From Bradyrhizobium sp. WBOS07 (lineage in GTDB: Bacteria; Pseudomonadota; Alphaproteobacteria; Rhizobiales; Xanthobacteraceae): DNA of 64,000 bases. The position numbers and the translations under genes were made by a program. Shown here in pieces: positions 43,352 to 64,000 of this stretch; the first letter of the stretch is position 1; the number at the start of each line of letters is the position of its first letter. A model generated the notes under the pieces. That model saw only the letters and a list, made by a program, of their open reading frames with translations, was not told the origin of the DNA and did not search any database. The stretch is taken from positions 868,001-932,000 of the forward strand of contig NZ_CP029008.1 of the NCBI RefSeq assembly GCF_024585165.1, read 5' to 3'.

Positions 43352-43360
43352 CCCACTTTG

Positions 43361-48957: not shown

Positions 48958-48980
48958 CTTCGTCGACTGCCTCTAGTGCC

Positions 48981-49063: not shown

Positions 49064-49148
49064 GGGCCTTTGTATTCCGATAGCCTATCGCGATCCCGCG
49101 GCGGAATGCGCCCGGGTTTTGCTTCGTCGAGCCCTTCGAAATGGAAGG

Positions 49149-49661: not shown

Positions 49662-49688
49662 TATCGAAAACAACCCCATGCACAGTAG
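49662..49688. repeat. Short dispersed repeat, copy 2
   Basis: Matches 15317-15344 apart from one base in the A-run. Like copy 1, it lies between convergent genes. Confidence 0.6.
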
Positions 49689-49738
49689 ACGGGGCTAGCG
49701 GGATCAAGGGGTTATGAGAGGGGGGCGGAACTCACAAG

Positions 49739-49912
49739 TCAGCGCGGCGGATCTTCGCGCAGACCGTCAACCTTGTTCTTGATCTCGGCTGTGGTCGCAC
49801 TCCGATCCCTGGCGACGATTTCGATTTCGTCACCGTCTTTGAGTGCAAGTCCGTCGATCAGCTCCTGGGGAAGAACCCCAGCCAGATCGTCATCCCATTT
49901 GAACACCTTCAT
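49739..49912 (-). CDS. Orphan AbrB/MazE-like antitoxin-type protein
   Basis: 57 aa, read by hand from the minus strand. The ATG at 49912 has a strong GAGGAGG five bases upstream. MKVFKWDDDLAGVLPQELID and LKDGDEIEIVARD fit the swapped-hairpin AbrB/SpoVT/MazE DNA-binding fold, in which a strand, a helix (PQELIDGL) and LxxGDxIEI follow each other. These are usually antitoxins that bind their own promoter. No toxin gene (PIN, MazF, HicA) lies on either side, so it appears to be solitary. The tail (NKVDGLREDPPR) could be a toxin-binding remnant. Confidence 0.78.
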   Translation of the reverse strand: MKVFKWDDDLAGVLPQELIDGLALKDGDEIEIVARDRSATTAEIKNKVDGLREDPPR

Positions 49913-50146
49913 CGCGGCCTCCTCTCAAACCACAGCGCTGTCGTCATCTCGCAAATGTGCTGAGGAGACGGATGGCCTTGGCTCCATCGAACAGATGCTC
50001 CGGCCCCCGCAATCACTTGCCGGACGAGTTATAGCGCAGCAGAGGCATGCCGCGCCGCGGGTCTCTCGATTTCCCCGAACCACATCCCCGTTCCGCGCGA
50101 CTAACCCTCGCCTCAACGGCGAGGCTATTTCGATGGGAGACGGTCT

Positions 50147-51013
50147 GTGGCGTTTGCCTTGCCTTCGCGTGCGTATGATCTGCAGATGCTGGACCGTCCG
50201 GTCGACCGCGCGCGCGACCAGGGCTGGGTGTTTGGGCTGCCGCCGGGCATCGCAAGCGAGCAATGGCCGCTCGATCCCGTCACCGGATATCCGCTGATGC
50301 ACGGCTTCACGCTGGAGCTGCCGGAGGATTACCGCGTGCATGGCGCGGATATCGTCGCGCTGTCGTTCTTTGCCACGGCGCCCGACCACAATGACGGCGG
50401 CGCGCCCGATGATCCTGAAGTCCGCGAAGCCATGAAGGCGCGCCCCTTGCATCCGCGGCTGTCGCGCATGACCGACATTCTCGACTACGAATATGCCGCG
50501 CTGCTGCTGACGCGAGCCGAATACGAGGGCCCGTTCGCGATGCCGCCGGAGCCGCTGGCGCTCGCGACCGCCGACCGGCCGCGCTGGCTCGATGTCGGCG
50601 GCGCCAGCGCTTTCTTCGAGGCCGCAGCGCCCTACGCCAGGAAGCTATTTGCGGCGCCGCCGCGCGCCGATCTCAGCGAGACCCGCGCGATCGGCATGAC
50701 GCCGCGCGCAAACGACCCTAACGCCGGCAAGGAACCGCAGGACGAGCACACCCGCAGCAATCCGCCGACCGGCTATCAGCCGTATTATTACTATGTGGGC
50801 GGCGTCCCTAGCCGCGACAATTTTCGCCTGCACGAATGGAGCAAGGATCACGCCCACAATCATCTCGGCGGCACCATGCGGCCGTGCCAGGCGGTGCCGG
50901 AGATGAGCCCGTTCTACATCGAGTTCGAGGAATATTTCGGCGGTTACAATTTCGGCGGCGGCAACGCGCAGCTCGACTTCAGGGACATGAAGTTCGACTG
51001 GGCGTGCGGGTGA
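50147..51013 (+). CDS. Hypothetical protein, cytoplasmic, function unknown
   Basis: 288 aa from a GTG with GGGAGA six bases upstream. No signal peptide or membrane segment is seen. The sequence is rich in aromatic and proline residues with conserved-looking blocks RARDQGWVFGLPPGIASEQWPLD, TGYQPYYYYVGGVPSRDNF and YFGGYNFGGGNAQLDF. The last glycine-rich block recalls proteins that show surface loops, but I cannot assign a family. It is convergent with, and abuts, the LTXXQ gene. Confidence 0.7.
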   Translation: MAFALPSRAYDLQMLDRPVDRARDQGWVFGLPPGIASEQWPLDPVTGYPLMHGFTLELPEDYRVHGADIVALSFFATAPDHNDGGAPDDPEVREAMKARPLHPRLSRMTDILDYEYAALLLTRAEYEGPFAMPPEPLALATADRPRWLDVGGASAFFEAAAPYARKLFAAPPRADLSETRAIGMTPRANDPNAGKEPQDEHTRSNPPTGYQPYYYYVGGVPSRDNFRLHEWSKDHAHNHLGGTMRPCQAVPEMSPFYIEFEEYFGGYNFGGGNAQLDFRDMKFDWACG

Positions 51014-52360
51014 TCACGCCCCCCGCTTCGGCCCGATCGCCTCGAAGCCCGCCTTCTGCTCGTCGCTCAGATCCGCCTCGAAATCGTCGAGCGCGTCGGT
51101 GACGCCGTTCACGGCCGCAAGCATCGCTTCCAGCCGCGCCTTGGCGGCGGCGAGGCGGGCTTGGGGCGTGGCGGCTGACACCGCCGGGCAGGCGCTGAGC
51201 GTCTGCATGGTGCGCAGGGCGGTGTCCTGCAGCACCTCGAAGCGGGCGCGGGCGATCTCGTCGAGGCGCAACGTGGCGGCGATGTCGTTCGCGGGCCATT
51301 GCTGCTGCACCAGCTGCTCGTATTGACGCTGCAGCTTTTCATCGTAGCGGGGATCGCTGTCGGCATCGCAGGCGGCCGCCGCCGGCGCATCCCTGCTCGA
51401 ATCCTTGCTCGCTTCCTTGCTCGAATCCTTGTTCGAATCCTTGTTCGAATCCTTGCGTTGCATCGAGGCCAGCGCGGCGCGGCGCTCGCCCCCGAGCGCA
51501 TTGAGCCGGGCCTTCTGTTCGTCGTCGAGCAGATCCGTGAACTTCGCAAGCGGCGGCGCGACGGCGTCGATGGCCTCGATCATGGCCTCCAGGCGCTCGC
51601 GCATCAGGCCGAGGCGCTCGGCGGCAGCAGTCGGCGCCTGCGCCGGGCAGGCGGCGCGAATGATGTCGCGCGCATTGCTCCAGGCGGAGGCGAGCTCGTC
51701 GAGCGCGGTGCGCTGCAATTCGTTGGGGGCGACGGCCGCAGCGATGCGGTCGACCGGCAGGCCCCCGGTGTCGCTGGCCTCGCACAGGGCCTCGGCGGTG
51801 GGGACGCGCCGGCCGCGGCGGCCTTGCGGGGCGGTGTAGGCCGCGAGCTCGGTCGCCGCATAGGGCGCGAAGATCGCGGCATAGACGTCGCCATAGCCGT
51901 AGAGCGAAAGGCTGGTGGCATCGCCGAGGATGATGGCGTTGGTGAGGTCGTCGTGCGCGAACGGCCAGAACACCGGGCCGGTCCAGCCATAGCTGCCGTC
52001 GGGATGGCGCCACCAGCCTTGCATGCGGCGGCCGCCCTGCCAGCCCGCAAGCGCGGCCTGCGCGGTAAGCGCCGCGCGGAGCATATAAGGGTTCGCAGGC
52101 TGGCCGCGCTCGGCGCCGCGCGGATCTTGCGAGCGCAAGGCCGCGGAGCGGTAGCGGCTGCCCCGCACCGCCATGCGGGAATGGCGCAGGCGCGACATGC
52201 CGAGCATGTGGCCGACGGCGAAACGCGCCACGCCGAGCGGACCGCCGCGGATTCCGAATTGCGCTTCGGCTCTCTCGGGCAGCAGCACGGCCGCAATCAG
52301 GAGGGTCGCGCCGGTCAGCGCCAGTCCCATGCGTCCCGACATGACCGCCGACCTGACCAA
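51014..52360 (-). CDS. Periplasmic Spy/CpxP-like (LTXXQ) protein
   Basis: About 448 aa from the TTG at 52360, five bases after GGAGGAGG; the ATG at 52342 is an alternative. A signal peptide (ALTGATLLIAAVLLPERAEA) precedes a ~150-residue unique region (RHPDGSYGWTGPVFWPFAHDDL). Then two copies of the LTXXQ/Spy helical unit follow, near residues 225-305 and 360-445, each with the pattern LxxMxxRLEAM and LLDDEQKARLNAL / LSDEQKAGFEAI. A Ser/Asp/Lys repeat, KDSN, sits between them. Spy-type proteins are ATP-independent periplasmic chaperones that sense envelope stress. The doubled domain is unusual. Confidence 0.78.
   Translation of the reverse strand: MVRSAVMSGRMGLALTGATLLIAAVLLPERAEAQFGIRGGPLGVARFAVGHMLGMSRLRHSRMAVRGSRYRSAALRSQDPRGAERGQPANPYMLRAALTAQAALAGWQGGRRMQGWWRHPDGSYGWTGPVFWPFAHDDLTNAIILGDATSLSLYGYGDVYAAIFAPYAATELAAYTAPQGRRGRRVPTAEALCEASDTGGLPVDRIAAAVAPNELQRTALDELASAWSNARDIIRAACPAQAPTAAAERLGLMRERLEAMIEAIDAVAPPLAKFTDLLDDEQKARLNALGGERRAALASMQRKDSNKDSNKDSSKEASKDSSRDAPAAAACDADSDPRYDEKLQRQYEQLVQQQWPANDIAATLRLDEIARARFEVLQDTALRTMQTLSACPAVSAATPQARLAAAKARLEAMLAAVNGVTDALDDFEADLSDEQKAGFEAIGPKRGA
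51394..51456 (-). repeat. 12-base tandem coding repeat (KDSN)
   Basis: The unit TCGAATCCTTGT occurs about five times with small changes, encoding a KDSN/KDSS/KEAS chain in the linker of the LTXXQ gene. In-frame units can be gained or lost by slippage without breaking the protein. Confidence 0.85.
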
Positions 52361-52519
52361 CTCGGCCTCCTCCCAGCTGCCACGCGCACACTGCGTCACA
52401 GGGGACATGACGCGCCAGGGAACCAATTGTTCCGGGGAGACACAGGGCAAAGCGTCGCGGGCGACCTATGGCCGGGCCGCACAATGACGCTTCGGCAGCG
52501 GCCTGCGCGCGCGCCTCGT

Positions 52520-52634
52520 CCTTCGAGACGCTTGCTGCGCAAGCTCCTCAGGATGAGGCTAAGCCACCGTCGAATTTGCCGCCACACACTCAGTCCTCAT
52601 CCTGAGGGCCCGCCAAAGGCGGGCGTCTCGAAGG
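52520..52634. repeat. REP-like palindrome
   Basis: Arms CCTTCGAGACGC (52520) and its complement ending at 52634, with an inner CCTCAGGATGAGG/CCTCATCCTGAGG pair. It fills most of the gap between the LysM and LTXXQ genes, both on the minus strand. Confidence 0.8.
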
Positions 52635-52656
52635 ATGGCCGCGGGAAAGCTCCCGC

Positions 52657-53769
52657 TCACTCCGGCTTTTGCGGCACCACGAAAGTCTGGCCGGGATAGA
52701 TCAAATTGGGGTTGCTGATCTTGTCGCGGTTGGCGTTGAAGATGACGGCGTAGCGGGCGCCGTCGCCGTAGGCGAGCCGGCTGAGCGCCCACAGGCTGTC
52801 GCCGCGGGAGATCACGCGGCTGGCGCCGGCCTCCGCCGGAACCGTGTGAAGCACCTCGGCCGGCGAGGCCGATGCCACCGTCGTGGTGGCGGCGGGCACC
52901 CGCGCCATCGCCCGGGGTTTCGGCCGGGGCGCTGGCCGGTCGGGCGCTGAGGCCAGACGCGGCGAGGCCGACGGCAGGGCCGCCACGACGTCCGACTTGT
53001 CATCGGCCTTCTCGGCCTGCTTCGGCTCCGGCTTGATCTCCGGCTTCGTCTCTTGCCGCGCGACCTGAGCCGGGCGCGCGGGCGGCGGTGCCGCCTCGGC
53101 GATGGTCACCGGCATGGTCTTGCCGGATTGCGTGACCGTGCCATCCGGCGCCTTGGCCCGCAGCGTCAATTCATAAGAGCCGGCGGGAAGCTGCGGCGGG
53201 GTCATCACGAACTGGCCCGAGGCGTCGGCGGTCACCGTATCGAGCGGCTTGCCGTCGCGCAGCAGCTCGACCTTGGCTCCCGGCGCGGCCCGGCCCGCGA
53301 TCACCGCCGCCTCGCCGTGATCGTCGACGCGGGCGACGTCGAAACGGGGCCCGGTATCGGCGGCCGCCGCCGGCGGCTTGACCGGCGCGAGATCGGGCAG
53401 CGCCGCGACCTGCTTTTGGATCTCGGCCAGCGGGGCCGGCTTCGGCTCGGGGGCCGGCACCGGGACCGCCGCCGGCGCTGGCTCAGCTGCGGGCGGCGCG
53501 ACGGCAGCCAGCTTTGGCTGATCCGGCTTGGCCTGATCCAGTTTCGGCTGTTCCGGTTTCGGCTCGGCCTTGAACTCGGCCTTGGCCTCGACTTTGGGTT
53601 CGACCTTGGTCTCCGGCTTGGCTTCCGGCTTAACTTCCGGCTTGGCGGCGATTGCGGTCTTGGCCCCGTCCGGCAGCATGCGGCGCAGCTCGGTCGGGCC
53701 GATCACCAGCACCGTGCCGACCAGTGCGAGCAGGCAGAAAGCAATGAAGGCCTTGGATGCGGTGATCAT
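52657..53769 (-). CDS. LysM-domain envelope protein with Ig-like module
   Basis: 370 aa from the ATG at 53769. One N-terminal membrane helix (FIAFCLLALVGTVLVIG) anchors a Lys/Pro/Glu-rich spacer with short PKPE/KVEPK-type repeats (~45-110). An Ig-like beta domain follows (~165-240: VIAGRAAPGAKVELLRDGKPL, GQFVMTPPQLPAGSYELTLRA), then a second disordered linker. A C-terminal LysM module binds peptidoglycan (ISRGDSLWALSRLAYGDG, NPNLIYPGQTFVVP). The arrangement fits a periplasm-spanning protein between inner membrane and cell wall. Confidence 0.88.
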   Translation of the reverse strand: MITASKAFIAFCLLALVGTVLVIGPTELRRMLPDGAKTAIAAKPEVKPEAKPETKVEPKVEAKAEFKAEPKPEQPKLDQAKPDQPKLAAVAPPAAEPAPAAVPVPAPEPKPAPLAEIQKQVAALPDLAPVKPPAAAADTGPRFDVARVDDHGEAAVIAGRAAPGAKVELLRDGKPLDTVTADASGQFVMTPPQLPAGSYELTLRAKAPDGTVTQSGKTMPVTIAEAAPPPARPAQVARQETKPEIKPEPKQAEKADDKSDVVAALPSASPRLASAPDRPAPRPKPRAMARVPAATTTVASASPAEVLHTVPAEAGASRVISRGDSLWALSRLAYGDGARYAVIFNANRDKISNPNLIYPGQTFVVPQKPE

Positions 53770-54004
53770 CGGAAAAACCTTGGATGGCAAATCAACCGAG
53801 GCCGGCAAGGTGCGCCGATTTGGCCGCGGCAGCAAGCCGGTCGAAGGGATGATCGCCCGGCTTTACCGTCACCGACGACGTCGACCTCGCCTTCACCTCG
53901 CCCGACGGCGCAACCAGGCGCGCGAACAGCGCGCCTTTGCCCACCCGACGCGCTTCCGCTTCACCAGCGACTCACTTTTCCGGATCAGGCTTTGGCGGAC
54001 GCGA

Positions 54005-54982
54005 TCATTCCGGAACGCGGGCGAAGACGGCGTCGGCTGCGACAGGCCCGGCAGGCTGCATTCGTTCATCCGCCAGGCGGGCGAGCGCGCGTTGCACGGC
54101 GAGCCAGCTCAACAGCGCGATCGCCAGGCCAGCGATGACGTCGCAGAAATAATGGCTTCCATCCACCGGCGTCGCCGCGATCATCGCAACGTTGAGCAGG
54201 GCGGCGATGCCGCCGATATATCTCACCGGCCACAGCGCCAGCAGGAACAGCAATCCGAGTGCGGCATGCAGGCTCGGGAAGCTGATGATGCCGTCGGCGC
54301 CCTCCGCGACCAGCTGACGGATGGTTCCGTCGCGCAAGCCAAAGAACACGGGCAGCGGCAGATCCCGCGTGACCGGCACGATCGCCGGCGAGTTGACCGA
54401 CGACAGATCCAGATAGCCCCAGACGCCCTGCGCCGGCATCAAGGTCGACACGCCGATGGTCAGAAGCGTCGTCAGTACGAAGCTCAGCATGAAGACGCGC
54501 AACCGCAGGGCATGCCCCGCGGCGGCCAGGACGAGGACGATCGCGGTCGCCTGCACGGCAAAGCTCGCATAGGCGAGCGCCAGCGTCCGATGCAGAAGCG
54601 GCGCGGCGTTCATGGCATCGAGCCACGACATCCAGTCGAAGCCGAGCCGCCGGTCCAGCGCGGCGAACTCGCTGTCCCACAGCGGCAATGCCGCGCTCGC
54701 CGCGACATAGGACAGGGGCGCGGCGACGGCTGCGAACGCAATGAGCTGGGCCGCCGCGATCAACGCGCTGGCAAGAGCCGCGTCCTTGCGGACCGTCGCG
54801 TAGAACCAGCTCAGCGATATGAGCAGGCCGCCGACGAGGGCAGGTTTCCAGAACGAGATCCATTCGATCCGGAACGGCCCCAGCATCGCCGCGATCAGCA
54901 CGACAGCGGCCGTGGACCCGATCGCGAGCCAGGCGATGCGATCGGCGTGCTTCGACTGATCAGGGGCGATGGGCTGGCTCAT
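54005..54982 (-). CDS. PAP2-superfamily membrane phosphatase/transferase
   Basis: 325 aa with about eight membrane helices. The acid-phosphatase motifs are partly visible as SFPSLHAALG (PSxH) and SHYFCDVIAG (the final xHxxxD). The first KxxxxxxRP motif is not obvious, as in PAP2 proteins related to inositol-phosphorylceramide synthase. Such proteins cleave or transfer lipid phosphates on the outer face of the inner membrane. It is transcribed alone; a 235-base gap separates it from the LysM gene. Confidence 0.85.
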   Translation of the reverse strand: MSQPIAPDQSKHADRIAWLAIGSTAAVVLIAAMLGPFRIEWISFWKPALVGGLLISLSWFYATVRKDAALASALIAAAQLIAFAAVAAPLSYVAASAALPLWDSEFAALDRRLGFDWMSWLDAMNAAPLLHRTLALAYASFAVQATAIVLVLAAAGHALRLRVFMLSFVLTTLLTIGVSTLMPAQGVWGYLDLSSVNSPAIVPVTRDLPLPVFFGLRDGTIRQLVAEGADGIISFPSLHAALGLLFLLALWPVRYIGGIAALLNVAMIAATPVDGSHYFCDVIAGLAIALLSWLAVQRALARLADERMQPAGPVAADAVFARVPE

Positions 54983-55201
54983 GGGCGGCGATCGTCCGGG
55001 GCGGCAACAGGAACGACCGGCGGGATGAGGTATGACAATGCCCCCGCCAGATGGGCCAGCTTTATCGGACGAAGATTAAGAGAGTCGTTCTCCGGACCCT
55101 TCAATTGCCTTCAGCCGGCCGTGCTCGACCGGAGCCGCCGTCCGAAAAATGGGGTCAAACCGCTGGAGATGCGGGATCCTGCTTGATGATAGCTCGCGGA
55201 C

Positions 55202-55324
55202 TCAGAGCTTCTGTTTTGCCGCGGTGATTTCGACGAACTCGGCGTCGGGATGGCTGACGATGGTGGCGACCCAGATGCCGCTGATGATCAGCGACCAGGC
55301 AGTGTTCCAATAGATCCAAAACAC
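55202..55324 (-). CDS. Small single-helix membrane protein
   Basis: 40 aa, read by hand. A GTG start at 55324 has GGAGG seven bases upstream. The sequence VFWIYWNTAWSLIISGIWVA gives one hydrophobic helix, followed by a short acidic/basic tail ending KQKL. The ribosome site and helix argue for a true small inner-membrane protein. No family assigned. Confidence 0.45.
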   Translation of the reverse strand: MFWIYWNTAWSLIISGIWVATIVSHPDAEFVEITAAKQKL

Positions 55325-55411
55325 GAGCCAGCCTCCATTTCGATCGCCGTCCGCAGCATCAGGATCGCGACACGGCCGTCGGCGCTATCCTCGGCGCTAT
55401 TTTGACTTGGT

Positions 55412-55588
55412 CTATTTTGACTTGGTCGCCGGCGGGGCACGATCGGTTTGGCCGCTGTGGCGCTTTGCCACGACGTCCTCATCGCGCTCGCCCAGGTTCG
55501 GGCGCGGCGGCGACTTGGGGAGGCCGGCCTGGCCGCCATGCTTGCCGCCCATGTCGGGCTTACCTTCAAGATCGTTTTCACGGGGCAT
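55412..55588 (-). CDS. Small hydrophilic disordered protein
   Basis: 58 aa, read by hand from the ATG at 55588. The sequence MPRENDLEGKPDMGGKHGGQ, with later SPPRPNLGERDEDVV, is highly charged and Gly/Pro-rich, without hydrophobic core. The ribosome site is weak. A duplicated 16-base unit (TATTTTGACTTGGTC) spans its stop codon. Moderate support only. Confidence 0.4.
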   Translation of the reverse strand: MPRENDLEGKPDMGGKHGGQAGLPKSPPRPNLGERDEDVVAKRHSGQTDRAPPATKSK

Positions 55589-55825
55589 GCGGGTTCAATG
55601 CGCTCGCGCGGCTTTGGTTCGCATGGCGCCCGCCATTTTGGCTGCGCGCGATCGCATGGGATGGCCGCACCTTGCGTTGCACGACGGAATGCCGGGGACG
55701 TCCACGCGGCTACCGATACGATTTCGGCATCGATCAATTCCCATTCGAATTTGGTGCGGCGGTGCGCCGCTCGCTATCCTCATGGGCAAGAGCACAAGGC
55801 CGCGACGCAGCCACAGGAGGAGCCC

Positions 55826-56968
55826 ATGTCGAGACTGCCCCGAGGCAGCGCAGCCACGGCGTTCCGCGCCGCGATTGCCGTCACTCTGTTCGCGTCCCTC
55901 ACCCTGTTTTCTGGAGCCCGCCCCGGCATGGCCGAAACGTTCATTTATGTCGGCAACGCCGACAGCAACGACATCAGCGTGTTCAAGCTGGCGGAGAGCG
56001 GCGAGATGATTGCGGTGCAGACGGCCGCCTTCAAGGGCGTCGACAAGCCCGGCTCCTCGACACCGCTTGCGATCACGCCCGATCGCCGCGTGCTGCTGGC
56101 CGGCGTCCGCTCGCAGCCATACGTCGCCGTGAGCTTCGCGATCGATCCTGGAACGGGCCAGCTCAACCCTGTCGGCAGCGGGCCGCTCGCCGACAGCATG
56201 GCCAACATCGCCGTCGACCGCAGCGGCAAGTTCCTGTTCAGCGCCTCCTATGGCAGCAACAAGGTCGCGCTGAATCCATTGCACGCAAGCGGCGTCGCCG
56301 GCGAGCCGAAACAGGTGATCGCGACCGGGCTGAACGCGCACGCCTTCCTGCCCTCGCCCGACAACCGCTTCGTGTTCGCGACCAATCTCGGCTCCGACCA
56401 GGTGCTGGCCTTCGCGTTCGACGCCGCGACCGGCACGCTGACGCCGGGCAACCCGCCGGCCTACAAGATGCCGGACAAATCAGGACCGCGGCACTTCGTA
56501 TTCCACCCCAACGGCAAGTTCGTCTATCTCGTCCACGAGCTCAACGGCGACGTCGCCGCGTTCGCCTATGCGGCGGAGAGCGGCGCCTGGAACGAGATCC
56601 AGCGCACCACCGCGCTGCCGGAGGGTTTTTCCGGCAAAGAGCCTGACAAGAAACCCTGGGCCGCCGACATCCACATCACGCCGGACGGCCGCTTCCTCTA
56701 CGCCTCCGAGCGCACCACCAGCACGCTCATCGCCTACAAGATCGACGCGAGCAGCGGCAGGCTGACGACGATCGGCAGCGTGCCGACCGAGAAGCAGCCG
56801 CGCGGCTTCCAGATCGATCCCTCCGGCCGTTATCTCGCCGCGGTCGGCGAGCTCTCCGACAGCATGACGGTCTATGCGATCGACCGGAGCAGCGGCGCGC
56901 TGGCCAAGCTGAAATCCTATTCCACCGGCAAGAAGCCAAACTGGGTGGAGTTCGTGACCCTGCCGTGA
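55826..56968 (+). CDS. Secreted seven-bladed beta-propeller lactonase (YkgB/Pgl family)
   Basis: 380 aa from the ATG at 55826, with AGGAGGAG upstream. A signal peptide (FRAAIAVTLFASLTLFSGARPGMA) precedes repeated propeller blades with DRSGKFLFSASYGS, SPDNRFVFATNLGSDQVLAF, HPNGKFVYLVHEL, TPDGRFLYASERT and DPSGRYLAAVGELS. This is the bacterial 6-phosphogluconolactonase/lactonase family, but the secretion signal rules out the cytoplasmic sugar-phosphate role. It probably acts on, or binds, an extracellular lactone. It stands alone. Confidence 0.85.
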   Translation: MSRLPRGSAATAFRAAIAVTLFASLTLFSGARPGMAETFIYVGNADSNDISVFKLAESGEMIAVQTAAFKGVDKPGSSTPLAITPDRRVLLAGVRSQPYVAVSFAIDPGTGQLNPVGSGPLADSMANIAVDRSGKFLFSASYGSNKVALNPLHASGVAGEPKQVIATGLNAHAFLPSPDNRFVFATNLGSDQVLAFAFDAATGTLTPGNPPAYKMPDKSGPRHFVFHPNGKFVYLVHELNGDVAAFAYAAESGAWNEIQRTTALPEGFSGKEPDKKPWAADIHITPDGRFLYASERTTSTLIAYKIDASSGRLTTIGSVPTEKQPRGFQIDPSGRYLAAVGELSDSMTVYAIDRSSGALAKLKSYSTGKKPNWVEFVTLP

Positions 56969-57053
56969 GAGGGCGCCCCACGGCCTACGTAAACATCCGT
57001 AACGTAAACATCCGCAATTTCGGAGAGCGCGCCTTGCCGTCATATCATCGGCC

Positions 57054-57224
57054 ATGGACCGTCACATTGTCTTCAAATGCCCGCAGACGGGCATGAACGT
57101 GCAGCATCGGCTCAGCAACGAGCCGACCGACCGCACGCATGAGTCGGTGTCCTGTCCGGCCTGCACGCGGCTGCATCTGATCGACCGGGCCAGCGGCAAG
57201 CCGCTGGGCGAGCGCCGCGGCTGA
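57054..57224 (+). CDS. Tiny zinc-ribbon-like protein
   Basis: 56 aa, read by hand. MDRHIVFKCPQTGMNVQHRL and SVSCPACTRLHLIDRASGKP carry Cys9, Cys34 and Cys37 with His41, a plausible half-ribbon metal site. The ribosome site is weak. Function unknown. It is convergent with the PAS gene, six bases away. Confidence 0.65.
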   Translation: MDRHIVFKCPQTGMNVQHRLSNEPTDRTHESVSCPACTRLHLIDRASGKPLGERRG

Positions 57225-57230
57225 AGGCGG

Positions 57231-57842
57231 TTACCGCCCTCTCGTGACTTGCGCCGTGACGTCCTCGACGTGGTGCAGCAGGTAGAGCAGACGGCCCGCC
57301 GGGTCGTGGATCGGCGAGTTGATCGGCTGCCAATGGCGCTCGACGAAGACGCCGCCGGGATTCCGGATGTCGTAGCGCTGGATCGCCATGGCGTGCGCCT
57401 GCCCCGTCTCGGCCACGATCCTCAAGCTGCCGTAGAGATTGCTGACGCCATCGGCGAGCGGATCGTCGGGATTGTCAGGAAATATCTCGAACAGCGACCG
57501 GCCGACGATTTCGGCCCGGTCGGTCAGGGTCGCCGCGGCATAGGCATCGTTGATGTCGACGATCAGCAGGCCCGGCCCCGGGTCCAGCAGCATGTAAGGA
57601 TGCGGCGAGGCATCGAATTCGGGCTGGAATTGCCGCCGCATCGTATCGGCGTCACCGTGCTGCCGGCGCCGCTGTTCAAGCGGCGTCGCATCGGCGCCTG
57701 ACTCCGCCGAGCTCAGCAGCGCCAATTGGCGCTTGGCCGATGCCAGCAACCCCCGCACCGTGTTCTGGACCGTTGAATCGGTCGCCTCATGGAGCAGCCG
57801 CTCGAAATGAGCGATATTCTGCTCGCAAACGAACCGTTGCAT
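57231..57842 (-). CDS. PAS-domain protein without effector
   Basis: 203 aa, with GAGGTGGA just before the ATG. An N-terminal helical stretch (CEQNIAHFERLLHEATD, NTVRGLLASAKRQLALL) is followed by one PAS fold (~75-200): HPYMLLDPGPGLLIVDINDAY, IVGRSLFEIFPDNPDDP, HWQPINSPIHDPAGRLLYLLHHVEDVT. No kinase, cyclase or DNA-binding domain is attached, so it must signal through a partner, or regulate by binding. The N-terminal helix looks like those of stand-alone general-stress PAS proteins. Confidence 0.83.
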   Translation of the reverse strand: MQRFVCEQNIAHFERLLHEATDSTVQNTVRGLLASAKRQLALLSSAESGADATPLEQRRRQHGDADTMRRQFQPEFDASPHPYMLLDPGPGLLIVDINDAYAAATLTDRAEIVGRSLFEIFPDNPDDPLADGVSNLYGSLRIVAETGQAHAMAIQRYDIRNPGGVFVERHWQPINSPIHDPAGRLLYLLHHVEDVTAQVTRGR

Positions 57843-58129
57843 TCCACCTCAACCATGAGCTGTGCGGCGGCGATGCCGCCTCATCCTGATCCTAATCCCA
57901 TACAGGCGGCTCTCGCATGTGAGAAGACCGTGATAGCCGCACTTTGGAAGTAGGGCCGAGCGCGCGCCCGCCCGGCAAAAAGGCGAACCTGTTCTCCAAT
58001 CCTGCGACTAATCAAGGACTTGCTGCGACGGCCCGGGCGGCACGGCCTGCTTTTTGGAGACAACGCTGCCGTAGTCCGCGACCCTGCCATCTGCTATCGA
58101 TTGGAGCCATAGAACCCGTGGAATTTCCG

Positions 58130-59020
58130 ATGCGTCGTTTGCCCCGTGCCGTTGTTCGAAGCCTGTGTCCCGCAGCCGTCGCCGGCGTGCTTGCCCTTGG
58201 TTCATGTCCGGCCAGAGCCGCCGATGACGAGGCGCCCAAGGGGCCGGCGGTCACGGTGCTGAAAGTCGCAAAATCCTGCTTCTCCGACATCGTCGAGGCC
58301 ACCGGCACGATCATCGCGCGGGAGGAGACCTCGGTGCGGCCCGAGCGTCCGGGCCTGAAGGTCACGGACGTGCTGGCGGAAGCCGGCGACACCACCACCG
58401 CCGGCCAGGTGCTGGCGCGGCTGGCGCTGCCCGAGGGCGGCACGCTGCAGGTCACCGCTCCCGTGGCGGGCGTGATCGCGACATCGACCGCCCAGATCGG
58501 AAATTTCGCCTCGGCCAAGGGCGAGGCGCTGTTCACGATCGTGGCGCGCAGCGAATACGATCTCGTCGGCCTCGTGGCGACCTCCGACGTGCGCAAGCTC
58601 GCCGTCAATCAGCCGGCGACGGTGCGGATCGCAGGCAGCGGCGACATCGACGGCAAGGTGCGCCGTATCGGCCCGACCATCGAGCCCAACATCCAGCAGG
58701 GCATGGTCTATATCGGCATCTCATCGCAGAAGCGGCTGCTGCTGAAGGCGAGCGGGCGCGCGCTGATCAAGACCGGGCAGAGCTGCAACGTTGCGGTGCC
58801 GCTGACATCAGTGCAATATTCCTCCGCCGGCACCGTGGTGCAGGTGATCCGCCGCAACCGCGTCGAGACCAAGCGTGTCGAGGTCGGCTTGATGTCGGGC
58901 GGCAATATCGAGATCCGCGACGGCCTCAACGAAGGCGATGTCGTCGTCGCCCGCGCCGGCGCACTGCTGCGTGAAGGCGATCCGGTCCGCCCGGTGATGG
59001 CCGCGGAAGCGGCGAAGTAG
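58130..59020 (+). CDS. RND-type periplasmic adaptor without a pump
   Basis: 296 aa from the ATG at 58130 (a GTG at 58118 is an alternative). A signal sequence (AVVRSLCPAAVAGVLALGSCPARA) precedes a membrane-fusion fold: KSCFSDIVEATGTIIAREE, LKVTDVLAEAGDTTTAGQVLARLALP, IEIRDGLNEGDVVVARAGALLREGDPV. It is a clear paralogue of the adaptor at 38671-39603, sharing CFSD near the start and the same C-terminal domain. No permease gene follows; the next gene is the convergent second pseudo-caspase. Confidence 0.83.
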   Translation: MRRLPRAVVRSLCPAAVAGVLALGSCPARAADDEAPKGPAVTVLKVAKSCFSDIVEATGTIIAREETSVRPERPGLKVTDVLAEAGDTTTAGQVLARLALPEGGTLQVTAPVAGVIATSTAQIGNFASAKGEALFTIVARSEYDLVGLVATSDVRKLAVNQPATVRIAGSGDIDGKVRRIGPTIEPNIQQGMVYIGISSQKRLLLKASGRALIKTGQSCNVAVPLTSVQYSSAGTVVQVIRRNRVETKRVEVGLMSGGNIEIRDGLNEGDVVVARAGALLREGDPVRPVMAAEAAK

Positions 59021-59076
59021 CAGCCACGCCCGTCATTGCGGTGCAGAGGCAAACGTGCGTCACACACGCATGCCGC

Positions 59077-59165
59077 AGGGTGGGCAAAGCGAAGCGTGCC
59101 CGCGTCTTCTGTCGAGATGATGGAGAGAATGGTGGGCACGACGCTTACGCGTCTTTGCCCACCCT
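59077..59165. repeat. Palindromic repeat related to 26765-26878
   Basis: Arms AGGGTGGGCAAAG (59077-59089) and its complement at 59153-59165, with an inner GCGTGCCC/GGGCACG pair. It shares the 13-base outer arm with the 26.8-kb element and lies between convergent genes. Confidence 0.8.
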
Positions 59166-59192
59166 ACGAGAGCTCGCGAGCCCTTAAAAAAA

Positions 59193-60041
59193 CTAGCCGC
59201 CGGCTTCGCCGAAACGGACGTCTTCGAGCAGCGAGGAGGAGACGGTCGGGACCTGGTCGCCTTCGCTGGCGCGGGAGATGGCGAGGCGGGTCTTGTTAAA
59301 GACGCTTTCGGCGCTGCCCTTGGCATTGAGGTTGCTAAGGAACTCGCTGACCAGCACGCTGTGCTCGCCCTTGCCGTCGTCGACGACCTTGCCGGGCGAG
59401 GCCGAGGAGAGGATCAGCGCGTTGTCGGACGCGCTGATCGGCGCGAGACCGTGGCTGTAGGAGCGGAAGCGGCGCTCGTAAGGGTTACGGCGGGAGGCGT
59501 CGACGACGACGAGCTTGGCCTTGGCGCCCTGCTCCTTCATCATCTCGAGCACGCCGTCGATCGAGACGCCCTGGCGGCGGACGTCGCTTTCCTTCCAGAT
59601 CGCGGCGTCGACCGGCAGCATGTAGCTCTCGCGGCCGGCCTGCACGCCGTAGCCGCCGAAGAACAGCATGACGACGCTGTCGCGCTTGATCCGGGACTTG
59701 AGGCGGTTCACGGCGCGGACCATGTCGTCCCGGGTCGCATCTTCCACCATGTCGACGTCGAAGCCGTCCTTGCGCAGGGACGAGGACAGCGCGCGGGCGT
59801 CGTTGATCGACTGCGTCAGCGGCGCGCTGGCGTCGGGATAATGTCCATTGCCGATGACCAGCGCGAGGCGCGAGGATTGGCCGATCGAGCCGGTGATCTG
59901 GTCGGTCGAGACGGCCTTAGCGGCATCGATCGCACGCATGTTGAGAGCAGCATGGGCGCCGATCACCAGCGAGACCGTGCCGATCAGGGCCGCGGCCACC
60001 GCGATGGTGCGTCGGGAAAGGTCGAGCTGCTTTACATTCAT
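59193..60041 (-). CDS. Membrane-anchored caspase-fold protein with degenerate dyad
   Basis: 282 aa from the ATG at 60041, with AGGAAACG upstream. One membrane helix (TIAVAAALIGTVSLVIGAHA) leads to a p20 domain: SRLALVIGNGHYPDASAPL, INDARALSSSLRKDGF, ESYMLPVDAAIWKESDVRR. As in the paralogue at 36154-37698, His is replaced (Tyr131 in FFGGYGVQ) and Cys is Ser (Ser183 in VDASRRNPY). It lacks the TPRs. The same two losses in both copies suggest a conserved non-proteolytic role. It is convergent with the lone adaptor gene. Confidence 0.88.
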   Translation of the reverse strand: MNVKQLDLSRRTIAVAAALIGTVSLVIGAHAALNMRAIDAAKAVSTDQITGSIGQSSRLALVIGNGHYPDASAPLTQSINDARALSSSLRKDGFDVDMVEDATRDDMVRAVNRLKSRIKRDSVVMLFFGGYGVQAGRESYMLPVDAAIWKESDVRRQGVSIDGVLEMMKEQGAKAKLVVVDASRRNPYERRFRSYSHGLAPISASDNALILSSASPGKVVDDGKGEHSVLVSEFLSNLNAKGSAESVFNKTRLAISRASEGDQVPTVSSSLLEDVRFGEAGG

Positions 60042-60473: not shown

Positions 60474-62201
60474 ATGAGCTTTCATTATTTTGCCGGCGCC
60501 GCCTGCCGGGCGCTGCTGGCGCCGAAGGACGGCCCCTCGCTTTACGACGTCTGCGATCCCGTCCTCTCGGGCCCGGCCGGCGGCGATCCGCATCTCGCCA
60601 AATTCTACAAGACCGCGCTCGGCAATCCCGCGCTGCGGGTGCTGCTGCGGCGGGCCGGGCTGCCCGAGCTGCGCGACGAGGCCAGGCTGACGGCGCTGCG
60701 CGAGGCGCTGGCGCGCGCCCGCGACGAGGCTGAGCCGGACTGGGCGGCGGTCGGCCAGCCGGTCGCCGATCTCGTCGACAGTATCGCGCTCGACCATCCC
60801 AAGCCGCCGCCGGCAATGCTCACCGGCGCCGCGCCGCCGCAAGCGCAGATCGACGCCGTGATCCGCGACTGCGCGCAGCATCTGCTCGGCTCCTACCGCA
60901 AGAACGGCTTCCTGCCGACCTATGCCGCCTTCAACCTGATCGGCGATCCCGATTTCCGCGGCCGCGAGCTGATCATGGCGCTCACCGGCCTCAATGCCCG
61001 CGGCTACAAGAATTCCTCGCTGCTGTTCAACCTCGCCCGCGTCTTCATCGCGCGCTCGAAGGCCGCGGCCGTCGTCAATCCGCCCTGGCGGGGAATCGCC
61101 GAGCCGATGTGGGAGCCGGTGCAGATCCGGCACCGCTCGGCCTATTACGATGCGTTCTTCATCGAGGCGCTGCTGAGCTACGGCGAGAGCGGCCTCGCCT
61201 CGCAGGCCGACAAGATCGCGGCGGAACGCGCCATCGCCGACATGGTGAATTTCTGCGTCAACATCAGCCGCGAGGAGGTCGAGGGCATCGACGGCGCGCG
61301 CTTCAACGTCGTCACCGCGCTGGCGCCGGCGCCGCATCCGCGCTTCTCGCGCTATTTCGCGCAGATCAAGCAGGATCTCGGTTTCGGCATCTACGTGCCG
61401 GATTGCGACACCACGGCGTGCTCGATCTCGGCAGCGACGCAGGCCGGCTGTCTTGATCCGATCATCGACCAGCCGCTGCTCGACTTCTATTCCGGCTACC
61501 AGGTGCGCGCCGGAATCAACGCAGCGCGCGTGACCGTGCCGCTCAACGACAACATCGATTACGAGGGCGGGGTCGCGACCTGGATCGACAACCTCGCGGG
61601 CGAGCGGCCCTATGGCAACGATCTCGATCCGACGCTCAATCTCGACATTCTCGAGGTGAGCTTTCGCAACCTGACGCGCTGGAAAGTCCTGGAGACGCCG
61701 GCGCGGCTCGCCACGGTGCATCGCATCATCGGCTTCCAGAAGCGGCTGGCGGCGAGTGGCGCCTTCGCCAATCCGCGTTCCCACATCTATTACCTGCCGG
61801 AACTCTACAGCGCCTATTTCGGCCGCTGCTATGCGGCCTTCCTGGCGCTGCCGCCGGCGGCGCAGGCCGCGATCGATCCCGCCGGCGATTTCGACTTCAT
61901 CCGCCATCGCGTGCTGTCCTACGTCAAAAGCGAGCTGATGGCCGCGGAGATGAACGCGTTCGACGCCGCGCTGGCGCTGATCGCGCTCGGCCATCTCGGC
62001 GCCGCCCCGCGCGACTTCGCGCCGGCACTGAACGTGATCGTCGGTGCCGTCGGCGAAGGCGGCCGCCGCGGCCCGTTCCGCGCCTATGAGTGGAACAAGA
62101 TGAAGACGCCGACGCGGATCCTGGTGGGCGGGCCGGAGGTGACGTCGGCCTTCGTGCTGATGGGGCTGGCGTTGGCGAAGCGGGCGATGGCGCGGGGGTA
62201 G
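60474..62201 (+). CDS. Large helical protein of unknown function, terpenoid-cyclase-like motif
   Basis: 575 aa from the ATG at 60474. It looks all-helical, without signal peptide or membrane helix. Conserved-looking stretches are FRGRELIMALTGLNARGYKN, SRYFAQIKQDLGFGIYVPDCDTTACSISAA and NLDILEVSFRNLTRWKVLETPARL. The DCDTTA element (residues 310-315) resembles the DxDDTA and DxDTTA motifs of alpha-toroid class II terpene cyclases and prenyltransferase-like repeat proteins. I do not claim that activity. It lies alone between the divergent pseudo-caspase gene and the thermonuclease-like gene. Confidence 0.7.
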   Translation: MSFHYFAGAACRALLAPKDGPSLYDVCDPVLSGPAGGDPHLAKFYKTALGNPALRVLLRRAGLPELRDEARLTALREALARARDEAEPDWAAVGQPVADLVDSIALDHPKPPPAMLTGAAPPQAQIDAVIRDCAQHLLGSYRKNGFLPTYAAFNLIGDPDFRGRELIMALTGLNARGYKNSSLLFNLARVFIARSKAAAVVNPPWRGIAEPMWEPVQIRHRSAYYDAFFIEALLSYGESGLASQADKIAAERAIADMVNFCVNISREEVEGIDGARFNVVTALAPAPHPRFSRYFAQIKQDLGFGIYVPDCDTTACSISAATQAGCLDPIIDQPLLDFYSGYQVRAGINAARVTVPLNDNIDYEGGVATWIDNLAGERPYGNDLDPTLNLDILEVSFRNLTRWKVLETPARLATVHRIIGFQKRLAASGAFANPRSHIYYLPELYSAYFGRCYAAFLALPPAAQAAIDPAGDFDFIRHRVLSYVKSELMAAEMNAFDAALALIALGHLGAAPRDFAPALNVIVGAVGEGGRRGPFRAYEWNKMKTPTRILVGGPEVTSAFVLMGLALAKRAMARG

Positions 62202-62461: not shown

Positions 62462-63181
62462 TTGCGAAAATTATTGATTGCGCTGGCTTTCCTCGCCCCC
62501 TCGCTCGCGCACGCCGCCGACATCACCGGCACGGCGAAGGTTCGCGCCGGCGATGCCGTGGTGATCGGCAACACGCGGATCCGGCTCGGCGGCATCGACG
62601 CGCCTGCGATCGACCAGCTCTGCCTCAACACCAGGACCGAGCGCTGGACCTGCGGGATCGCGGCGCGCGACGAGCTCGCCAAGCATGCCGACGGCAAGAC
62701 CTGGACCTGCCACACGAGGTCGATCGACCGGCGCGGCCGCACCGTGGCGCGCTGCGAGGTCGGCGGCGAGGACATCCAGAAATGGCTGGTGCGCAGCGGC
62801 TGGGCGCTGGCCTACACCCGCATGTCCCATGATTACGAAGCGGACGAAAAGGCCGCGCGCGAGGCCAAGGCCGGGATGTGGCAGGGCGCGTTCATCGCGC
62901 CCTGGGACTGGCGCGTCCGCAACAAGAAGACCGTGATACTGGGTGCCACCAAGGCGCCCGACGGGGCGCATGCGGTGCTGCTCGCCTCGGCTTCGGGGCC
63001 GGTCGCCCCCTCCCCGGACTGCACCATCAAGGGCAACGTCAACAGCGCCGGCGAGTGCATCTTCCACCAGCCGACCAGCCGCTGGTACACCCAGATCAAG
63101 ATGAAGATCAGCAAGGGCACCCGCTGGTTCTGCTCGGTCGAGGAGGCCGAAGCCGCCGGCTGCCGCGAGACCAAGCGATAA
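62462..63181 (+). CDS. Secreted thermonuclease-fold (SNase) protein with altered active site
   Basis: 239 aa from a TTG; the ribosome site is weak. Signal peptide LLIALAFLAPSLAHAA. The SNase OB-fold is recognisable (VRAGDAVVIGNTRIRLGGID, DRRGRTVARCEV, WALAYTRMSHDYEADEKAAREAKAGMW). Compared with staphylococcal nuclease, catalytic Arg35 and Arg87 are kept (Arg41, Arg93), and so is the Asp of the D-x-P turn (Asp46). The catalytic Glu43 position is Ala49 (IDAPAIDQ). Four or more cysteines suggest disulfides. Activity is therefore uncertain. The C-terminal ~90 residues are an unassigned extension. Confidence 0.82.
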   Translation: MRKLLIALAFLAPSLAHAADITGTAKVRAGDAVVIGNTRIRLGGIDAPAIDQLCLNTRTERWTCGIAARDELAKHADGKTWTCHTRSIDRRGRTVARCEVGGEDIQKWLVRSGWALAYTRMSHDYEADEKAAREAKAGMWQGAFIAPWDWRVRNKKTVILGATKAPDGAHAVLLASASGPVAPSPDCTIKGNVNSAGECIFHQPTSRWYTQIKMKISKGTRWFCSVEEAEAAGCRETKR

Positions 63182-63281: not shown

Positions 63282-64000
63282 ATGACCGTTCGCGCGGGCC
63301 GGGAGTTTCTGGCCATCCCCGGGCCCACCACGATGCCCGACGAGGTGCTGCGGGCGATGCACCGTCCGGCGATCGACATCTATTCCAAGGAGATGCTCGA
63401 CCTGACCGAGAGCCTGCTCGGCGACATCTCCAAGCTGTTTGCGACCAAGGGCAAGTCCTACATCTACATCGCCAACGGTCACGGCGCCTGGGAAGCGGCG
63501 CTCAGCAACGTGCTGTCACGCGGCGACAAGGTGCTGGTTCTGGAGAGCGGGCGCTTTGCGATCGGTTGGGGCAATGCCGCCGCGCTGATGGGCGCCGAGG
63601 TCGAGGTGCTCAAGGGCGACTGGCGCCGCGCGGTGCGGCCGCACGAGGTCGAGGAGCGCCTGCGCCGCGACAGGGAGCACACCATCAAGGCCGTCGTCGT
63701 GGTCCAGGTCGACACGGCCTCGGGCGTGCAGAACGACATCGAGGCGATCGGCAAGGCGATCAAGGCGAGCGGCCATCCCGCGCTGTACATGGTCGACACC
63801 GTGGCCTCGCTCGGCTGCATGCCGTTCGAGATGGACAAATGGGGCATCGATGTCGCGATGTCCGGCTCGCAGAAGGGCCTGATGACGCCGCCCGGCCTCG
63901 GCTTCGTCGCCGCCAATGCACGCGCGCTCGAGGTGCACAAGAAGGCCAACATGTCGACGCCCTATTGGAGCTGGAGCGAGCGCGAGGGCACCGAGAATTA
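63282..64000 (+). CDS. Class V aminotransferase (serine/alanine-glyoxylate type), 5' part
   Basis: The first 239 codons from the ATG at 63282, with AAGGA upstream; the gene continues past the right edge. The N-terminus FLAIPGPTTMPDEVLRAMHR and YIANGHGAWEAALSNVLSRG match the alanine/serine-glyoxylate family. The PLP lysine is in MSGSQKGLMTPPGLGF and the PLP aspartate in YMVDTVASLG. It moves the amino group between serine or alanine and glyoxylate. SgaA-like serine-glyoxylate activity is plausible; the C-terminal substrate residues are missing. Confidence 0.88.
   Translation, partial: MTVRAGREFLAIPGPTTMPDEVLRAMHRPAIDIYSKEMLDLTESLLGDISKLFATKGKSYIYIANGHGAWEAALSNVLSRGDKVLVLESGRFAIGWGNAAALMGAEVEVLKGDWRRAVRPHEVEERLRRDREHTIKAVVVVQVDTASGVQNDIEAIGKAIKASGHPALYMVDTVASLGCMPFEMDKWGIDVAMSGSQKGLMTPPGLGFVAANARALEVHKKANMSTPYWSWSEREGTEN

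What the first reader, a model, noticed from the sequence alone, without database searches (positions are those of the whole stretch)
58130..60041. Second pseudo-caspase again beside a paralogous RND-type adaptor
The protein at 59193-60041 has the same double loss (Tyr131, Ser183). Its neighbour at 58130-59020 is a paralogue of the adaptor at 38671-39603, which itself lies close to the first pseudo-caspase. Two independent copies of the same pairing within 64 kb suggest that pseudo-caspase and adaptor work together, an association I do not know to be described.
Basis: inference. Interest (0 to 1): 0.7.

Follow-up and report, generated by a model that had tools for sequence, protein, structure and literature searches.

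The report
Dead caspases beside an RND pump
The gene pair is real, but it is the seam between two conserved gene blocks rather than a second copy of a module; what it belongs to is an efflux-pump cluster with two short adaptor proteins and catalytically dead caspase-like proteins, seen across a bacterial family.

Summary
Confirmed: 59193-60041(-) is a caspase-fold protein without the catalytic dyad (Tyr131/Ser183); 58130-59020(+) is an RND adaptor, paralogue of 38671-39603. They are convergent, not an operon. "Two independent copies of one pairing" does not hold. In relatives the parts form one cluster, FS-pseudocaspase-OmpA-adaptor1-RND-adaptor2, with RND and adaptor2 overlapping or 9-40 bp apart in four loci. 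The YS-pseudocaspase belongs to a neighbouring block (up575-nuclease-aminotransferase). YS-adaptor2 adjacency holds in 91 of 91 genus genomes with both on one contig, but YS's other neighbours are kept as well. In the family it is absent in 12 of 39 genomes, five of these on separate contigs. Adaptors duplicated before the caspases. The real association is the first pair: in 44 of 44 family genomes with both on one contig they lie within 2.4 kb, same strand. The pseudocaspase subfamily is in 57 of 159 genomes, adaptor1 in 54 of those; photosystem genes are in only 15 of the 57, against a published hypothesis. Both adaptors lack the alpha-hairpin (BesA is the best fold match). Most likely: a two-adaptor, hairpin-less RND envelope system with pseudocaspases as periplasmic scaffold or regulatory subunits; that role is inferred.

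The parts
36154..37698 (+). FS-type pseudo-orthocaspase: signal peptide (read by eye), caspase p20 domain without His/Cys, proline-rich linker, TPR repeats (first pseudocaspase)
   Evidence: Peptidase_C14 125.5 bits and TPR; FFSGFG / LIDASRRNP
37841..38512 (+). OmpA-domain (peptidoglycan-binding type) exported protein
   Evidence: PF00691 78.8 bits
38671..39603 (+). RND periplasmic adaptor 1, hairpin-less, N-terminal hydrophobic segment (read by eye)
   Evidence: HlyD_D23 51.5 bits; alignment A1; RND_mfp 91.1 bits, just under its cut-off 94.9
39603..42752 (+). RND permease (HAE1/MdtB-like), start overlaps the stop of adaptor 1 by one base
   Evidence: ACR_tran 759.6 bits; best solved relative MdtB; gap -1
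43361..44134 (-). Crp/Fnr-type regulator, convergent to the RND gene; within 1.5 kb after RND in 29 of 56 named loci with RND
   Evidence: ORF; NCBIfam Crp/Fnr models, all under cut-off; neighbours; count
44135..58129 (.). About 14 kb that separate RND/Crp from adaptor 2 here; absent in compact relatives
   Evidence: RND-adaptor 2 gap 15377 bp here, 9 bp in L182, -4 in L199; PAS and lactonase genes from this stretch found in 0 of 20 diverged genus genomes, PAP2 in 1
58130..59020 (+). RND periplasmic adaptor 2 (gene of the finding), signal peptide (read by eye), hairpin-less, BesA-like fold
   Evidence: model pLDDT 90.6 all beta, Foldseek ranks 1-8 BesA
59193..60041 (-). YS-type pseudo-orthocaspase (gene of the finding): N-terminal hydrophobic helix, then p20 domain with Tyr131/Ser183
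   Evidence: model helix 11-48 in a stretch of pLDDT under 50, then a caspase fold; best fold match MALT1 paracaspase
60474..62201 (+). Conserved 575-aa protein of unknown family, divergent from the YS gene; stable neighbour of YS
   Evidence: no Pfam or NCBIfam match; beside YS in 20 of 20 diverged genus genomes
62462..63181 (+). Thermonuclease-like gene (label recalled from the sequence, no family search made), part of the YS-side block
   Evidence: ORF; present in 19 of 20 diverged genus genomes
63282..63998 (+). Aminotransferase-like gene running off the window (label recalled from the sequence, no family search made), part of the YS-side block
   Evidence: ORF; present in 18 of 20 diverged genus genomes

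Best explanation
The pair is the junction of two conserved blocks. Block A is one envelope transport system: FS-pseudocaspase(TPR) - OmpA - adaptor 1 - RND permease - adaptor 2. Block B is YS-pseudocaspase <-> up575 - nuclease - aminotransferase. In this genome about 14 kb separate adaptor 2 from RND/Crp, which makes it look like an orphan. Proposed working: a proton-driven RND trimer carries two different short adaptors, as TriC carries TriA and TriB. Neither adaptor has the alpha-hairpin that docks TolC, as in BesA. The OmpA-domain protein anchors the assembly to peptidoglycan. The exported FS-pseudocaspase, a dead p20 fold plus TPR, acts as a non-catalytic periplasmic scaffold or sensor of the assembly. 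The YS-pseudocaspase arose later, by duplication inside the family, and is probably a membrane-anchored modulator of the same kind. Shown here: gene order, operon-like overlaps in some relatives, loss of the dyad, absence of hairpins, relative age of the duplications, purifying selection. Inferred: ancestral order, assembly of the parts, scaffold role, any role of YS in the pump.
For: Gene order and strand in relatives. Gap RND to adaptor 2 of 9, -4, 40 and 15 bp in L182, L199, L210 and L217; pseudocaspase to adaptor 1 of -14, 38 and 42 bp in L214, L213 and L215. FS within 2.4 kb of adaptor 1 on one strand in 44 of 44 family genomes with both on one contig, and ahead of adaptor 1 in 61 of the 80 best named loci. 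Caspase subfamily in 57 of 159 family genomes, adaptor 1 in 54, both in 54. Dyad absent in 13 of 13 rows of A2 and 22 of 22 of A3. YS under purifying selection, dN/dS 0.11-0.30 in four comparisons. Hairpin absent in 29 of 29 adaptor rows (loop of 8-34 residues in its place) and in the model; BesA best fold match. Adaptor split older than the parting from family f42; YS nested within the family.
Against: No interaction or expression data. RND and adaptor 2 are not contiguous everywhere: same strand but 950 to 6028 bp apart in L183, L187, L191, L192, L200 and L201, convergent in L193, adaptor 2 divergent from adaptor 1 in L190, 15377 bp in the window. A terminator-like hairpin (10 pairs) lies between OmpA and adaptor 1 here at 38574-38597. 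In Rhodoplanes-type genomes (g120) FS and adaptor 1 are on different contigs in 6 of 6, with no adaptor 1 in the four g120 FS loci fetched. G432 has FS-OmpA without a detected adaptor. G048 has lost FS and a full OmpA but keeps adaptor 1-RND-adaptor 2-YS. A further FS-TPR paralogue stands alone (17 of the 80 loci; L203). The YS model has pLDDT 76.9 from 13 sequences, its first 55 residues under 50. Some tree forks that matter have moderate support (82/85, 84/80). Co-occurrence p-values ignore kinship.
Confidence: 0.55

Rival explanations
1. Pair 2 is only a synteny neighbour: the YS-pseudocaspase has nothing to do with the RND system, and its partner is the divergent up575 block or none. Only FS belongs to the pump.
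For: up575 in 20 of 20, nuclease in 19 of 20 and aminotransferase in 18 of 20 diverged genus genomes next to YS. In five YS loci away from adaptor 2, four keep up575-nuclease-aminotransferase and the fifth keeps nuclease and aminotransferase. The genes converge, so no shared operon. Extra YS copies in L204 and L205 have no cluster adaptor in the fetched stretch.
Against: Each of 39 family genomes with YS also has adaptor 2, while 12 genomes have adaptor 2 without YS, so YS is nested inside the cluster's range. YS is a close relative of the cluster's own FS. In G048 YS is the only match of the YS query (E to 0.001) and sits beside adaptor 2-Crp-RND-adaptor 1.
Confidence: 0.4
2. A duplicated two-gene module (pseudocaspase + adaptor) works as a unit at both sites.
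For: Both halves are paralogous, and convergent adjacency is kept in 91 of 91 genus genomes with both on one contig.
Against: The adaptor split predates the separation of families f1 and f42, the caspase split does not. Strand arrangement differs between the pairs. Adaptor 2 follows RND in several relatives.
Confidence: 0.05
3. Pseudocaspases of this group serve photosynthesis, as proposed for bacterial pseudo-orthocaspases (PMC6426788).
For: The published correlation at the level of orders (sections 12, 13 and 18 read). A weak association remains here (phi 0.29, Fisher P 0.0005 without regard to kinship).
Against: 42 of 57 genomes with this subfamily have no Photo_RC match, this complete genome among them. 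6 of 21 phototrophs lack the subfamily.
Confidence: 0.05
4. Decayed or chance neighbours: dead proteases without function.
For: Lost catalytic dyad; chance level not excluded within one genome at short distance.
Against: dN/dS 0.11-0.30 for YS. Open frames in the listed YS orthologues of the genus; 11 of the 96 rows show one stop inside the match, which in the one such case I could place (L304) lies in the last three residues. Conserved DASRRNP-ERRFR stretch.
Confidence: 0.03

Closest known systems
Bacterial pseudo-orthocaspases of Rhizobiales (Klemencic et al. 2019, PMC6426788)
   Same: Caspase p20 domain; Tyr-Ser, Tyr-Ala and Phe-Ser substitutions; the Phe-Ser type carries C-terminal TPR repeats, as here (section 13)
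   Different: That text holds no occurrence of operon, neighbour, genomic context or efflux and proposes photosynthesis; here the tie is to an RND cluster in mostly non-phototrophs
Metacaspase operons with OmpA genes (Asplund-Samuelsson et al. 2012, PMC3501461)
   Same: OmpA domains reported in 14 metacaspase operons, and transporters among cell-surface operons (passages)
   Different: 'efflux' occurs 0 times in the text; dead-dyad members not treated apart in the passages seen
BesA of Borrelia burgdorferi BesABC (PMC3807786)
   Same: [quoted passage not shown] best fold match to adaptor 2
   Different: BesA is one adaptor, with a lipidation site and a TolC-type BesC in its operon (passages); here two adaptors, no conserved lipidation Cys (A1), no outer-membrane channel gene seen in the cluster, pseudocaspase and OmpA instead
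TriABC-OpmH of Pseudomonas aeruginosa
   Same: Two adaptor genes with one RND permease (passages of PMC8277102, and PMC4446572); 6vej, an RND adaptor fusion chain, is among the sequence matches of adaptor 2 (that 6vej is TriAB is recalled)
   Different: Tri adaptors have hairpins (recalled); no pseudocaspase or OmpA partner known to me
SyOC, pseudo-orthocaspase of Synechocystis (PMC7889975)
   Same: A dead-dyad orthocaspase with a reported role (attenuating oxidative stress; title and abstract start in the listing only)
   Different: Cyanobacterial; whether it has any transporter context was not checked

Membership tests
Pseudo-orthocaspase (YS and FS types) | Caspase p20 domain | tested here: met
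   PF00656 131.9 and 125.5 bits; fold match MALT1 caspase domain for YS
Pseudo-orthocaspase (YS and FS types) | His-Cys dyad substituted | tested here: met
   YS 10 and FS 3 of 13 rows of A2; FS 10, YA 8, YS 2, VS 1, FA 1 of 22 rows of A3. Two g120 paralogues outside A3 (L212, L219) keep His and have Ala for Cys
Pseudo-orthocaspase (YS and FS types) | No p10 domain | tested here: inconclusive
   No separate p10 model matched, but no p10 profile was run
Pseudo-orthocaspase (YS and FS types) | No proteolytic activity | not testable with these tools
   needs purified protein
RND periplasmic adaptor (PAP/MFP) | Family profile over its cut-off | tested here: met
   adaptor 2: RND_mfp 108.0 against 94.9; adaptor 1: 91.1, just below, but HlyD_D23 51.5 against 30
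RND periplasmic adaptor (canonical, TolC-docking) | Alpha-helical hairpin between the lipoyl halves | tested here: not met
   absent in 29 of 29 aligned adaptors, loop of 8-34 residues instead, and in the model of adaptor 2, pLDDT 90.6
BesA-like hairpin-less adaptor | Lipoyl, barrel and membrane-proximal domains without hairpin | tested here: met
   Foldseek ranks 1-8 are BesA, E 8e-17 to 4e-15, TM-score on the query 0.58-0.68
BesA-like hairpin-less adaptor | N-terminal lipidation | tested here: not met
   no conserved Cys at the signal-peptide end in the 16 adaptor 2 rows
TriABC-like two-adaptor RND system | Two adaptor genes in one operon with one RND permease | tested here: met
   met as gene order in relatives L182, L199 and L210; in the window itself adaptor 2 lies 15.4 kb away; transcription not tested
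TriABC-like two-adaptor RND system | Both adaptors needed for function | not testable with these tools
   needs deletion mutants
Anti-phage caspase system | Match to a defence caspase model with a defence partner | tested here: not met
   weak match of the p20 domain only (PDLC02987, 28-33 bits); the one other match among the six proteins scanned, SIR2 for up575, is 17 bits

The most novel reading that the evidence does not exclude
Catalytically dead caspase-fold proteins are structural or gating subunits of a hairpin-less, two-adaptor RND machine. They and the peptidoglycan-binding OmpA protein do the job that hairpins and TolC do in known pumps, and the FS and YS forms pair as a hetero-complex inside it.
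Probability: 0.2. Interest if true: 0.8.

Novelty: new variant of a known kind. Interest (0 to 1): 0.5.

Why it matters
I know of no established function for the alphaproteobacterial pseudo-orthocaspases; the published guess is photosynthesis (a cyanobacterial one is linked to oxidative stress by a title). A stable tie to an envelope transporter, in mostly non-phototrophic genomes, gives a different and directly testable hypothesis. The RND side matters too: hairpin-less adaptors challenge tip-to-tip models of pump assembly, and the BesA authors could not exclude an unidentified factor that compensates for the missing hairpin (PMC3807786, passages). This cluster offers named candidates for such a factor in genetically tractable soil bacteria.

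Tried and rejected
Duplicated-module reading: rejected by the order of duplications. Photosynthesis reading: weakened by counts. Defence-system reading: only weak matches. Chance in one genome: not excluded by itself at short distance, superseded by the comparison. A seeming counter-example, G041 with YS but no adaptor 2, and likewise G096, turned out to be contig ends. Promoter and terminator scan of 58900-60500 gave nothing above shuffles; in 36000-43400 one promoter-like site upstream of FS (0.7 expected) and 7 terminator-like sites against 3.5 expected. A broad protein search with adaptor 2 listed near-identical proteins (90% or more) among its best 120, the named ones Bradyrhizobium or Bradyrhizobiaceae, and added little. 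Literature: searches returned no paper; 50 (50 papers, 15 listed) and 85 (103 papers, 12 listed) showed none on this subject in the rows listed; most subscription papers are not in the library. No search for an outer-membrane channel gene elsewhere in the genome was made, and no complex prediction was possible.
Full report
1. The observation. The two genes are where the finding puts them. The caspase-fold gene is on the minus strand and the adaptor on the plus strand, so they converge, 172 bp between stop codons. Pfam calls them Peptidase_C14 and HlyD_3. Tyr131 and Ser183 replace the catalytic His and Cys. The genome is a 6.73 Mb single contig; close relatives of its adaptor are named Bradyrhizobium in the databases. 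It holds 19 C14 hits, 12 of which showed both an intact His and an intact Cys motif in my pattern scan, 31 HlyD_3 rows and 18 ACR_tran hits, 17 of them over the cut-off. With so many of both, two caspases within 3 kb of an adaptor gene (midpoints) is only a P of about 0.08 event; at 8 and 12 kb the excess is larger (4 and 7 caspases, P about 0.04 and 0.003), and a pair of caspases 23 kb apart is expected by chance. The argument 'twice in 64 kb' is therefore weak by itself.

2. Conservation of pair 2 in the genus. Of 98 genomes searched, 96 listed a YS orthologue and 94 an adaptor 2 orthologue. On one contig: 91, all 91 convergent, gaps 78 to 2322 bp; 3 were on different contigs; G006 and G035 had neither; G041 and G096 had YS only, and in both the contig ends there. 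This looks like strong linkage, but the control cancels it. In 20 of the more diverged genus genomes (chosen by me from those at 68-73% identity of YS) the neighbours on the YS side are kept just as well (up575 20 of 20, nuclease 19 of 20, aminotransferase 18 of 20, the stretches fetched being 14 to 19 kb), while the PAS and lactonase genes on the far side of adaptor 2 are found in 0 of 20 and PAP2 in 1 of 20. Adjacency of YS and adaptor 2 is thus block synteny.

3. Beyond the genus. In 159 genomes of the family, drawn evenly (47 genera), YS is in 39. Adaptor 2 is within 1.1 kb of it, convergent, in 27 of the 39. The other 12: seven at a measured distance (G413 6.6 kb, G349 15.6 kb, G475 248 kb, G474 684 kb, G389, G444 and G460 over 1 Mb along the contig) and five on different contigs (G347, G367, G405, G490, G439; in G439 adaptor 2 starts at base 19 of its contig, for the others the contig ends were not examined). 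In nine of the 12 (G347, G349, G367, G389, G405, G413, G444, G460, G474) adaptor 2 lies 3.1 to 9.3 kb from adaptor 1 on the same strand; in the other three they are on different contigs. In the five of the 12 whose YS locus I fetched, YS sits beside up575-nuclease-aminotransferase in four and beside nuclease and aminotransferase in the fifth. There the break falls between the two genes of the finding.

4. Where adaptor 2 belongs. In eight family genomes (G330, G353, G404, G425, G443, G459, G474, G489) adaptor 1 and adaptor 2 are on one strand 3.1 to 3.2 kb apart, the size of one RND gene; I confirmed RND between them in the three fetched (L182, L199, L210). Gene calls give RND-adaptor 2 gaps of 9 bp (L182), -4 (L199), 40 (L210) and 15 (L217, RND cut by the contig end). 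Elsewhere the two are not contiguous: same strand, 950 to 6028 bp, in L183, L187, L191, L192, L200 and L201; convergent, 56 bp, in L193; adaptor 2 divergent from adaptor 1 in L190. The compact form occurs in three genera (g3, g122, g115), so I take FS-pseudocaspase, OmpA, adaptor 1, RND, adaptor 2 as the ancestral order (inference). In this window about 14 kb lie between RND/Crp and adaptor 2.

5. Where pseudocaspase and adaptor really go together. Of 54 family genomes with adaptor 1, a pseudocaspase other than YS lies within 939 to 2382 bp on the same strand in 44, on another contig in 9, and is not listed in one. In the best 80 named genome loci of 508 found, 61 show FS followed by adaptor 1, 56 of them with OmpA between and 56 with RND right after. 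Of the 19 without, one is cut by a contig end, one is Rhodoplanes, and 17 (56-65% identical to the window's FS, 16 of them from records named Bradyrhizobium) look like a further paralogue that stands alone. In L214, L213 and L215 the pseudocaspase overlaps adaptor 1 by 14 bp or ends 38 or 42 bp before it. The order FS-OmpA-adaptor 1-RND also occurs in a second family, f42 (L184, L186). Co-occurrence in the 159 genomes: caspase subfamily (YS query, E to 1e-40) 57, adaptor 1 (E to 1e-30) 54, both 54, adaptor only 0, caspase only 3 (G419, G432, G477, the last on a 5.6 kb contig). By genus the tallies are 18 and 16 of 47. The Fisher value of 2e-39 ignores kinship and depends on these thresholds.

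6. History. In a tree of 49 caspase domains the 42 pseudocaspases split from 7 other caspases of this genome with support 100/100. YS is one clade (100/100) inside the family; the fork that puts it among the family's FS has 82/85, and the one that leaves the f42 members outside 84/80. In the adaptor tree (37 rows, 36 different) adaptors 1 and 2 separate at 100/99 with f42 members on both sides. So the adaptors duplicated before the two families parted and the caspases, with moderate support, afterwards; no pair was copied as a unit.

7. Proteins. Both adaptors lack the alpha-hairpin: the lipoyl halves are joined by a loop of 8 to 34 residues in 29 of 29 rows. The model of adaptor 2 is all beta at pLDDT 90.6 and its eight best structural matches are BesA, the known hairpin-less adaptor. 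Two cysteines (Cys50, Cys219) are conserved in 90% or more of the rows of both adaptors and lost together in L215, which suggests a disulphide. YS starts with a hydrophobic stretch that the model draws as a helix (11-48), but with pLDDT under 50; the caspase fold after it best matches the MALT1 paracaspase. No row of 13 YS and 22 FS sequences keeps His or Cys; two further g120 paralogues keep His. YS is under purifying selection, dN/dS 0.11 to 0.30 in four comparisons.

8. Photosynthesis test. Klemencic et al. 2019 (PMC6426788; abstract and sections 12, 13, 18 read) tie alphaproteobacterial pseudo-orthocaspases to anoxygenic phototrophs. In the same 159 genomes Photo_RC is found in 21. Of the 57 with this caspase subfamily 15 have it and 42 do not (phi 0.29, Fisher P 0.0005; against phi 0.96 for adaptor 1); 6 phototrophs lack the subfamily. 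This complete genome has none. Dyads were read only for the fetched loci, not for all 57.

9. Function. Shown: gene order, dead dyads, missing hairpins, relative age of the duplications, selection. From family knowledge (recalled): RND permeases are proton-driven exporters, OmpA domains bind peptidoglycan, TPR repeats bind proteins. Inferred: one envelope assembly with the pseudocaspase as scaffold or sensor. YS may be a modulator of the same assembly or belong with up575; G048, whose only match to the YS query is YS itself, beside adaptor 2-Crp-RND-adaptor 1, favours the former, its stable up575 neighbour the latter.

10. Novelty. The proteins are members of described families. OmpA in metacaspase operons is in print (PMC3501461, passages). 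The tie of dead caspases to a two-adaptor, hairpin-less RND cluster appeared in none of the searches made (the last four terms of each listing limited as told above; word counts).

Noticed in passing
L190 (G346), L213 (G492), L215 (G453), L206 (G419): In several genera the pseudocaspase carries a formylglycine-generating-enzyme-like C-terminal domain (label recalled; L190 matches PvdO at 203.8 bits, under its cut-off; the others by alignment) instead of TPR; in L190, L213 and L215 it lies beside the adaptor/RND genes.
   Followed up: partly
L203 (G021:C1:6716000-6731000) and 17 of the 80 loci L222-L301: A further FS-TPR pseudocaspase paralogue, mostly in Bradyrhizobium, stands alone, without adaptor, RND or OmpA of this cluster in the fetched stretch.
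   Followed up: partly
L204 (G031), L205 (G001): Extra YS copies in the genus with no adaptor of this cluster in the fetched stretch.
   Followed up: partly
L183 (G048:C22:215500-235000): Natural loss: no FS and only a 44-residue OmpA match, while adaptor 1-RND-Crp-adaptor 2-YS are kept; YS is the only match of the YS query in that genome.
   Followed up: partly
window 60474-62201: up575, a conserved 575-aa protein without Pfam or NCBIfam match, holds a DCDTTA motif that recalls class II terpene cyclases (recalled, not tested).
   Followed up: no
window 43361-44134: A Crp/Fnr-type regulator convergent to RND lies within 1.5 kb after RND in 29 of 56 named loci with RND and may regulate the cluster.
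   Followed up: partly
window 38574-38597: A terminator-like hairpin (10 pairs) between OmpA and adaptor 1 may split the cluster into two transcripts here.
   Followed up: no
adaptors, Cys50 and Cys219 of 58130-59020: A cysteine pair conserved in both adaptors and lost together in L215 suggests a disulphide.
   Followed up: no
G000:C1:2506806-2507465: A further caspase-fold gene of this genome without His/Cys in my pattern scan (YLAGYG / VLDSAR), not close to the FS/YS pair (31% to FS).
   Followed up: no
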